A stretch of 64,000 nt of DNA. Origin: Citrobacter sp. 18056 (GTDB lineage Bacteria; Pseudomonadota; Gammaproteobacteria; Enterobacterales; Enterobacteriaceae). Shown piece after piece: positions 19,936-21,552 of the stretch; the first letter of the stretch is position 1; each line of letters starts with the position of its first letter. The notes under the pieces are model-generated. The model ran no database searches and was not told where the DNA came from. It was given only the letters and a program-made list of their open reading frames with translations. Made by a program: the position numbers and the translations under genes. The stretch spans positions 62,001-126,000 of the forward strand of contig CACSJR010000002.1 in the NCBI GenBank assembly GCA_902706235.1, given 5' to 3'.

Positions 19936-21552
19936 TTACGCCATATAGTCGTTAAAGCTTACAACCTCATCTTCGTCTTCTAGAAATGGGTTGTTGACGA
20001 CATGACAATATGACTCAGCTTTAGTCTTGTAACTTTCATCTGGCATAAAGTCAACGCCATAATTTTTCATGATGTCAAAGCATTTATCATTATAAGGGTT
20101 TGGGGCTTTATCTTTATAGAACCGCTGATAATAAAGGAGCCAATATCTGTCAATGTCATATTCATAATCTAGTTTAATGATATCGCTAACAAAATTATTA
20201 ATTTCTTCTTCATACATGTCCGTGCTATCTAGCAAGCATAAGCTCAAGCAGTCACCGAAACATATAATCATTTTTATAACATCATCATCTATATCAATGT
20301 TGTTTTTGATACAAAAATAAAGAGTCCAAGCCATGCCGTCAGAGTATTTATTCTCTGCACACATTCTCAAAATCTCATTGAATTTATTCTTATACTCATC
20401 ACCATCATCTAAATAGACATGTTCGATAAGAACGCCTAGATATGGGATGAGCATTGGATAATGCCATGATAAATTTAGAAGATAGTCATACACCTGAGTG
20501 ATTGTATACTCATCTAAATTATTTATAATCAAGGAAATAGCATATTTTAGTATGCTTCCACCACCAACTTGAGTGTTCAACTGTACAGCGTAATCTAGGA
20601 AGTTAATTACTTCAGAAGAACTTAGTGTGTTTAATTCCTGATCTGTATAACGTTTTTTTGTTGGTGAATTTACATTAAGCAAAGAAACCCAGTTATCATT
20701 CAAAGTTCCAGGGAGATTGGTTATTTTAGTTTTATGTAAGTTTAGTGATAACTTATACTTAGACAACTCCATGCCGAGTAAATGTAAAAACTCCTTGGCA
20801 TCATCATGTGTTTTGCAATAACATGTGTAATCATCTATATAACGCCTAAATAAAAAACCATTATCCCTCAGTCGCTTATCCACAGCACTTAAAATAATCT
20901 CACAAACAATGCTTGAGGTCGCAGGGCCAATAGGAACGCCATGTGTTTCATTTCTTTTAGCTTGACGCTGAAAGTAGTCAAGTTTGTCGCTCCAATGTTT
21001 ATCTTGGTTTTTTACTTTAGTATTTAAAGCTATCTTTGCATTGTTAATTCCTATAACTGCCCACGGGATAGAGTGCGAGTAAATATTGGTAAAGCAGCCT
21101 GATATATCTGCGTTAACTTTAAACCGTCGTCCAAAACCATCATTTAGCTCTCTTATGGTTTTAGTTTCTGCATCCTCATAATTCATGATTATGACACGGC
21201 CATCAGTATGCATGTCTGGTTTGATCATGCTGCTTTCATTTTCTTTTATAAATCGTATTTCCTCCCAGTTATCATGTATATGCTTGGCTAACTTTGAGTA
21301 CGCTTTTGGATGGATGATTGACAGCGTTCTTGGGAAGTTATTATATCTGGTAGCGTAATATTCCACGCAATCATAACCTTGTAAACTCCTGCGCTCCGAT
21401 GTATCAGATGAAATTATCTCTGCTATTTCCGGCGTGAATGTCCTGGAAGAAAAGCACGGCGGGATTTCGCTTGTTGAACCTTTTTGGTTAGGGAAATAAT
21501 TATGCCTCAGCAATGCTTCATACAAATGCCGTTTTTCATCAAAAATAGCCAT
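19936..21552 (-). CDS. Unknown-group/Abi-type reverse transcriptase, probable anti-phage protein
   Basis: This is a 538-residue reverse transcriptase in the cargo slot of the satellite. The polymerase motifs are intact. Motif A is VNADISGCF with Asp149, motif B is [10 protein letters not shown] at 204-213, motif C is Y238-I-D-D241, and motif D is [10 protein letters not shown] at 268-277. The N-terminus shows a YFP...EIPPCF pattern that I associate with defence-associated UG reverse transcriptases. Residues 281-538 form a long, acidic, mostly helical extension without a recognised motif, as in Abi and UG proteins. Retron reverse transcriptases are about 320 residues and lack this. I cannot place it in a numbered DRT family; DRT4-like or Abi-P2-like are the nearest guesses. 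It has A+T-rich codon use, unlike its neighbours. A GAGGG site precedes the start. Confidence 0.88.

What the first reader, a model, noticed from the sequence alone, without database searches (positions are those of the whole stretch)
19936..21552. Uncharacterised reverse transcriptase as sole cargo of a selC-integrated P4/phiR73-like satellite
The sequence shows a 538-aa protein with intact motifs A (Asp149), B and C (YIDD, 238-241) plus a 250-residue acidic helical extension. It sits exactly in the int-to-cos slot, where P4-like satellites carry anti-phage genes. phiR73, another selC satellite, carries a retron there. This enzyme is too long for a retron, and no msr/msd pattern was recognised. 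It is probably a DRT/Abi-type defence enzyme, possibly a new subgroup. The DRT family is not determined.
Basis: partly seen in the sequence, partly recalled or inferred. Interest (0 to 1): 0.85.

Follow-up and report, generated by a model that had tools for sequence, protein, structure and literature searches.

The report
DRT4 antiphage enzyme in P4-like satellite
This gene is a close copy (95% identical) of DRT4, an already studied bacterial antiphage enzyme, carried as cargo by a small P4-like phage satellite; it is a sound but ordinary find, whose modest new point is that close relatives of this gene keep turning up in that same cargo slot.

Summary
An intact 538-aa reverse transcriptase lies at 19936-21552 on the MINUS strand, with motif A Asp149, YIDD 238-241 and an acidic C-terminal half. 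It fills the int-to-cos slot of a 9.6-kb P4-type satellite in selC, bounded by a repeat whose first 20 nt are identical.

The label 'uncharacterised, family undetermined, possibly new subgroup' does not hold. The protein is DRT4 (UG15): PADLOC Drt4 747.7 bits against 296.2 for the best other family (Drt6); NCBIfam Drt4 equivalog 676.5, cut-off 450; 511 of 538 residues identical to PDB 21ou_A. Reviews describe DRT4 as a single-gene, template-independent, Tyr-primed ssDNA polymerase whose toxic product is stabilised by a phage DNA-binding protein (ORF55). I assign that mechanism by homology; no activity was tested.

What I add: all five close copies found (93-96% identical to the window's, dN/dS 0.03-0.09) adjoin a P4-type psu end and cos, in elements whose other genes diverge far more (integrase to 64%, sid to 26%). 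One of them, in a satellite contig, is 537 of 538 identical to the solved DRT4. drt4 with its ~310-nt leader thus looks like a swappable satellite cassette. New member of a known kind; low interest.

The parts
19936..21552 (-). drt4 (UG15) reverse transcriptase, 538 aa, intact
   Evidence: PADLOC Drt4 747.7 bits; NCBIfam NF041749 Drt4 676.5 vs cut-off 450; PDB 21ou_A 511 of 538 identical
21106..21108 (-). codon of Asp149 (motif A)
20830..20841 (-). YIDD, residues 238-241 (motif C); the same DD reads AA in PDB chains 9vdv and 9luj
19939..20712 (-). C-terminal acidic helical half, residues 281-538
   Evidence: charge count; helices in a low-confidence AF2 model; covered by the Drt4 profile and the PDB match
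21553..21864 (-). leader between cos and drt4, conserved in all 5 close copies; no excess RNA structure found
21865..21883 (-). cos: equivalent of the first 19 nt of the P4 genome
   Evidence: blastn to the joined ends of P4, 150 of 198 nt; 19-mers shown
18496..18590 (+). selC (tRNA-Sec), integration target
18571..18596 (+). att repeat, selC side
28177..28202 (+). att repeat, far side
18753..19919 (+). tyrosine integrase (int)
   Evidence: Pfam Phage_integrase; 38% to P4 int
22057..22623 (-). psu
   Evidence: Pfam Psu 291 bits; 59% to P4 Psu
22640..22885 (-). delta/ogr-like activator, 81 aa
   Evidence: Pfam Ogr_Delta
22882..23685 (-). sid homologue
   Evidence: 66% to P4 Sid; phrog_6165
24179..24445 (+). 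excisionase/regulator (P4 ORF88 homologue)
   Evidence: 67%; phrog_2790
24442..24990 (+). cI/Ash/Icd-like immunity region
24657..24743 (+). C4 antisense RNA
   Evidence: Rfam RF01695, 83.4 bits
24981..25214 (+). 77-aa ORF of unknown function
   Evidence: phrog_10110
25211..25531 (+). ORF106 (DUF5375)
25546..27879 (+). alpha primase-helicase
   Evidence: 83% to P4 alpha

Best explanation
The gene encodes DRT4 (UG15), a stand-alone defence reverse transcriptase that the satellite carries as antiphage cargo. Most likely working: the enzyme assembles into a hexamer, primes DNA synthesis on one of its own tyrosines, and polymerises untemplated, random-sequence ssDNA with the D149/DD240-241 active site. 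Without infection exonucleases remove the product. When a phage makes a DNA-binding protein of the ORF55 kind, the 3' ends are protected, ssDNA accumulates, and cell growth and phage multiplication stop. Shown here: gene identity, intact active site, cargo setting, purifying selection, signs of exchange between satellites. Inferred from the near-identical studied protein: hexamer, priming, product, trigger. Not shown: activity of this copy, its phage range, the priming tyrosine.
For: Profiles: PADLOC Drt4 747.7 bits vs Drt6 296.2, UG30 212.8, UG14 151.6, AbiK 137.9; NCBIfam Drt4 equivalog above its cut-off, the 4 other hits far below theirs. PDB: five distinct sequences match end to end at 1199-1206 bits; 511 of 538 identical to 21ou_A; titles 'substrate bound DRT4', 'catalytically inactive DRT4', 'crystal structure of UG15'; the inactive form has the same DD changed to AA. 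Tree of 19 rows: window in a 4-row clade (100/100) nested in a 7-row clade (97/100) with three more rows whose best PADLOC model is the same Drt4 one. Mechanism: PMC13213688 (part 1 of 2 of its text read), passages of PMC13314766; hexamer: passage of PMC13174585. Context and selection.
Against: Nothing found against DRT4 identity. For function: no experiment on this copy; 27 residues differ from the solved protein; the primary DRT4 paper is not held, so the mechanism rests on two reviews. PADLOC's 'Drt4' is not one clade in my tree: L008, L010 and L011 form another, and L009 (best model a Drt4 one, 659.9 bits) falls with the DRT6 row; the window's clade holds L015, which is all but identical to the solved protein. 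5 of 16 inner branches were open and long branches (AbiK, retron) met. The priming tyrosine could not be named: Y158 and Y475 are tyrosine in 13 of 13 rows and Y85 in 12 of 13 of one alignment; in another only Y158 is in 13 of 13, and Y158 lies 9 residues after the motif A Asp, so it may be kept for other reasons.
Confidence: 0.93

Rival explanations
1. A new UG/Abi subgroup distinct from DRT4.
Against: 511 of 538 residues identical to solved DRT4/UG15; equivalog cut-off passed by 226 bits; tree.
Confidence: 0.01
2. A retron RT with an unrecognised msr/msd in the 310-nt leader, or another ncRNA-dependent DRT.
For: The leader is conserved in 5 of 5 close copies and in E. coli was found only in the genome that has drt4 (1 of 5426). 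It diverges somewhat less than fourfold sites of drt4 (62/310 vs 46/158, window against S30: Fisher p 0.036, one pair of sequences).
Against: No Rfam family there; folding energy at chance, z -0.35, 37 of 100 shuffles as good; 78 predicted pairs, 4 with a two-sided kept change. Retron model 23.9 bits vs cut-off 235. Reviewed as a single-gene system.
Confidence: 0.04
3. A DRT6-type enzyme or an intermediate of DRT4 and DRT6.
For: Drt6 is the best model of another family (296.2 bits); the reviews report activation of DRT6 by ORF55 too; PADLOC's Drt4 and Drt6 models overlap for some distant rows (L009).
Against: Drt4 is 451 bits better; a DRT6 row (L020) scores Drt6 517 vs at best 329 on a Drt4 model and falls elsewhere in the tree.
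Confidence: 0.01
4. Not defence: the RT serves the satellite's own life cycle (replication, packaging or copy number).
For: All 5 close copies found are tied to P4-type sequence, and the gene adjoins cos.
Against: The passages of PMC9122126 say that P4-like elements carry different systems at this locus; integrase relatives occur in 157 of 5426 E. coli genomes, drt4 in 1; the K. michiganensis copy is intact in a decayed element; no P4 gene was found at the loci of three more distant DRT4 (L004, L018, L007), though L007 holds only 1.5 kb on each side and L004 1.4 kb on one.
Confidence: 0.04

Closest known systems
DRT4 / UG15, solved (PDB 21ou, 9vdo, 9vdv, 9ltm, 9luj, 9l9s)
   Same: 511 of 538 residues to 21ou_A, same YIDD, end-to-end match
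   Different: 27 substitutions; no activity measured here; the source organism and locus of the solved protein were not seen in my calls, but the satellite contig L015 encodes 537 of its 538 compared residues and L016 all 347 that it holds
drt4 of E. coli S30 (NZ_CP010231.1, WP_073546649.1)
   Same: 507 of 538 residues, same slot between psu/cos and int of a P4-type satellite
   Different: its satellite lies at a tRNA-Thr gene beside proA, and its integrase is 64% identical
Satellite P4 (NC_001609) and phiR73
   Same: gene order, alpha 83%, ORF106 89%, sid 66%, psu 59%, cos; [quoted passage not shown]
   Different: P4 has gop, beta and cII in the slot; the delta here is 81 aa (P4 166); no P4 epsilon or ORF151 homologue found at 1e-4. 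phiR73's own sequence was not compared
DRT6, AbiK, Abi-P2, DRT3b
   Same: UG/Abi-type RT with a long C-terminal part (class 1 grouping partly recalled; one search gives it for AbiK and DRT3b)
   Different: far lower profile scores and separate tree positions

Membership tests
DRT4 (UG15) | full-length match to the family profile above the curated cut-off | tested here: met
   NF041749 676.5 vs 450, residues 8-502; PADLOC 747.7 over 5-537
DRT4 (UG15) | intact RT active site (motif A Asp, YxDD) | tested here: met
   D149, YIDD 238-241; same DD mutated in the inactive PDB form
DRT4 (UG15) | phylogenetic grouping with DRT4, apart from DRT6/AbiK/Abi-P2 | tested here: met
   100/100 and 97/100 clades, 19 rows; but four rows that PADLOC also names Drt4 (L008-L011) lie outside the 7-row clade, so PADLOC's Drt4 as a whole is not one clade there
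DRT4 (UG15) | single protein-coding gene, no partner gene | tested here: met
   no other ORF of note in the int-to-cos slot
DRT4 (UG15) | no ncRNA needed | tested here: inconclusive
   no Rfam hit, no structure excess in the leader, but the leader is conserved and an unstructured RNA cannot be excluded
DRT4 (UG15) | C-terminal helical domain as in the solved protein | tested here: met
   end-to-end 95% match to solved chains; own AF2 model helical there but low confidence, mean pLDDT 53.5
DRT4 (UG15) | template-independent, Tyr-primed ssDNA synthesis; ORF55 activation; phage protection | not testable with these tools
   reviews only
Retron | retron RT profile plus msr/msd | tested here: not met
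   23.9 bits vs 235 cut-off; no retron model among the 25 shown of 63 PADLOC hits, where the retron RT of phage pro147 scores 586 on model RT_IV; no Rfam hit
Group II intron RT | maturase RT profile above cut-off | tested here: not met
   57.6 bits vs cut-off 300
P4-like satellite | int, att in a tRNA gene, cos, psu, delta, sid, alpha | tested here: met
P4-like satellite | epsilon (helper derepression) | tested here: not met
   no tblastn match to P4 epsilon at 1e-4; I do not take it as defining, since a diverged or replaced gene is possible and the related elements L001, L015 and L016 gave no match either

The most novel reading that the evidence does not exclude
This close DRT4 lineage, the solved protein's included, is a dedicated satellite weapon: drt4 with its own conserved 310-nt leader next to cos moves as one cassette between P4-type satellites with different integrases and capsid genes, and its expression or activation is coupled to helper-phage infection (for instance through a helper DNA-binding protein or through transcription crossing cos).
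Probability: 0.15. Interest if true: 0.45.

Novelty: new member of a known kind. Interest (0 to 1): 0.2.

Why it matters
It settles the identity of a gene flagged as possibly new: a known defence enzyme in a known cargo hotspot. The useful residue is ecological: all five close copies found, one of them all but identical to the solved DRT4, sit in or beside P4-type satellite sequence, so satellites seem to be the vehicle of this lineage. That makes a test possible of whether a satellite's DRT4 reacts to the satellite's own P2-type helper or only to rival phages.

Tried and rejected
New subgroup: rejected by 511 of 538 identity to solved DRT4. Retron or ncRNA partner: not supported by profiles, Rfam or folding. 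Own structure prediction: poor (mean pLDDT 53.5 from a 4-row alignment); Foldseek ranks UG15/DRT4 first, but with TM about 0.5 and rmsd 14-15, and its score uses the amino-acid letters too, so I do not count it as independent evidence. Priming tyrosine: several candidates, none singled out; position 44 of the AbiK row (the residue changed in PDB 7z0z, 'Y44F') aligns to an isoleucine of the window protein. Promoter and terminator scans of 19850-22060 are at chance (9 found vs 7.8 expected, 2 vs 1.6). Helper search: no match to two P2-type families (gpA PF05840, gpO PF05929) in the own genome; two families only, and the assembly has 124 contigs. tRNA scans of L015 and L016 found none, so the sites of these two elements are unknown.

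Whether DRT4 in P4 satellites is already in print: I searched with 'DRT4', 'P4-like satellites', 'UG15', a satellite/DRT/hotspot set, 'DRT type 4' and 'DRT4' with 'satellite'. In the listings and the passages that I opened I saw no statement of it. Of PMC9122126 I read passages only, not its tables; PMC12824646 names DRT_4 in an unclassified Vibrio region, not in a satellite, in the passage seen; the primary DRT4 paper and a UG/Abi survey sought by DOI are not held. So I claim no novelty for it.

Rows left out of the 19-row tree: L002, L005 (the window's own gene), L014 and L016 (partial), L017 and L025 (about 405 aa), L019 (ORF not completed). Labels: PADLOC scans cover 13 of the 18 rows other than the window (8, and L007-L011, after the tree); S30 is labelled by its record, K. 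michiganensis and L015 by identity, L012 and L013 not at all.

Full report
Observation. The ORF at 19936-21552 is real, intact and on the minus strand. Pfam finds RVT_1 at E 2.4e-14 over residues 135-279.

The element. selC (tRNA-Sec) lies at 18496-18590. A 26-nt repeat, identical over its first 20 nt and 92% overall, marks the ends at 18571-18596 and 28177-28202, 9606 bp apart. Between them lie int, drt4, cos, psu, an 81-aa delta, sid, an excisionase, the cI/Ash region with C4 RNA, a 77-aa ORF, ORF106 and the alpha primase, in the order of P4. The junction of the P4 ends aligns to the region upstream of drt4 (150 of 198 nt), which puts the equivalent of the P4 cohesive end at 21865-21883. The RT therefore sits in the int-to-cos slot; PMC9122126 describes a hotspot of anti-phage systems beside cos in P4-like satellites (passages read). 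No match to P4 epsilon or ORF151 was found.

Identity. PADLOC gives Drt4 747.7 bits; the best model of another family is Drt6 at 296.2. NCBIfam's Drt4 equivalog scores 676.5 against a cut-off of 450, while group II (57.6 vs 300) and retron (23.9 vs 235) models fall far short. Against the PDB, five distinct sequences match end to end at 1199-1206 bits; 511 of 538 residues equal 21ou_A. Entry titles are 'The crystal structure of UG15', 'Cryo-EM structure of the substrate bound DRT4' and '... catalytically inactive DRT4'; in the last, YIDD reads YIAA. A 19-row tree puts the window with S30, K. michiganensis and L015 (100/100) and these with L004, L018 and L007 (97/100), whose best PADLOC model is the same Drt4 one, apart from rows of DRT6, AbiK, Abi-P2, DRT3b and a retron. 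Against a tidy picture: four other rows that PADLOC also calls Drt4 (L008-L011) lie outside this clade, L009 with the DRT6 row; 5 of 16 inner branches are open; AbiK and the retron are long branches that meet.

Mechanism. By homology to a 95% identical protein. [quoted passage not shown] A passage of PMC13174585 lists DRT4 among hexameric RT assemblies. The primary paper is not held. I could not name the priming tyrosine.

Relatives and mobility. drt4 DNA is in 1 of 5426 complete E. coli genomes (S30, 89.9%), while near relatives of this satellite's integrase gene are in 157 of 5426. In samples of whole genomes, the Drt4 profile found 1 of 392 in the family (the window's own; E <= 1e-60), 4 of 369 in the class and 5 of 398 in the phylum (own included; E <= 1e-40; some of these hits group with DRT6). 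Scans by short exact peptides, which reach close relatives only, gave 2 loci in GTDB contigs and 2 in IMG/VR. Five close copies are thus known to me: window, E. coli S30, K. michiganensis L003, and the contigs L015 and L016. All five adjoin the end of psu and a P4-type cos (in L003 the psu end is 18 codons, too short for tblastn). On the other side the integrase is whole in the window, S30 and L015 and broken in L003; L016 ends inside drt4. Other genes vary far more than drt4: integrase 64% in S30 but 96% in L015; sid 26% in L015 but 93% in L016; drt4 93-96% to the window throughout. So the cargo has been exchanged between satellites. In L003 the psu end, cos, intact drt4 and a broken integrase at a tRNA-Thr gene are all that I find of the satellite. 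dN/dS is 0.03-0.09 over 10 pairs of the five copies, L016 being partial, so the protein is kept by selection. L015 encodes 537 of 538 compared residues of the solved chain 21ou_A, and L016 all 347 that it holds: the studied DRT4 itself matches satellite-borne copies, though its own source locus was not seen.

The leader. About 310 nt between cos and drt4 are conserved in 5 of 5 copies and, in E. coli, were found only in the genome with drt4 (1 of 5426). Divergence between window and S30 is 62/310, against 46/158 at fourfold sites (Fisher p 0.036): mild constraint at most. It folds no better than shuffles (z -0.35), 4 of 78 predicted pairs show a kept two-sided change, no Rfam family matches, and promoter hits are at chance. 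I do not call it an ncRNA.

Verdict. A well-read observation, but the enzyme is known. New member of a known kind; interest low. The share worth keeping is the tie of this DRT4 lineage to P4-type satellites, on five copies only.

Noticed in passing
window 24981-25214 (+): 77-aa ORF of unknown function (phrog_10110) where P4 has ORF151/epsilon; no P4 epsilon or ORF151 homologue was found in this satellite (tblastn 1e-4).
   Followed up: partly
window 22640-22885 (-): delta is a single 81-aa zinc-finger protein, not the 166-aa form of P4.
   Followed up: no
L003 7440-10580: Klebsiella michiganensis DSM 25444: drt4 intact between a psu/cos remnant and a broken integrase at a tRNA-Thr gene; no other satellite gene was found at the locus.
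   Followed up: partly
L015 3593-4375 against window sid: This viral contig has an integrase and drt4 close to the window's (96%, 95%) but a sid of only 26% identity: recombination between cargo/int and capsid modules.
   Followed up: partly
L015 5719-7332 and L016 6766-7806: The drt4 of these satellite contigs equals the solved DRT4 chain 21ou_A in 537 of 538 and 347 of 347 residues, so the laboratory model of DRT4 probably comes from a P4-type satellite.
   Followed up: partly
L022 29-3314 (Escherichia phage pro147): A P2-type phage record (Peduovirus) carries a retron-type RT (beside an Ec48-family effector) and an Abi-P2 RT side by side.
   Followed up: no
window 24517-24594 (+): Rfam isrK match (69.8 bits) just upstream of the C4 RNA in the satellite's immunity region.
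   Followed up: no
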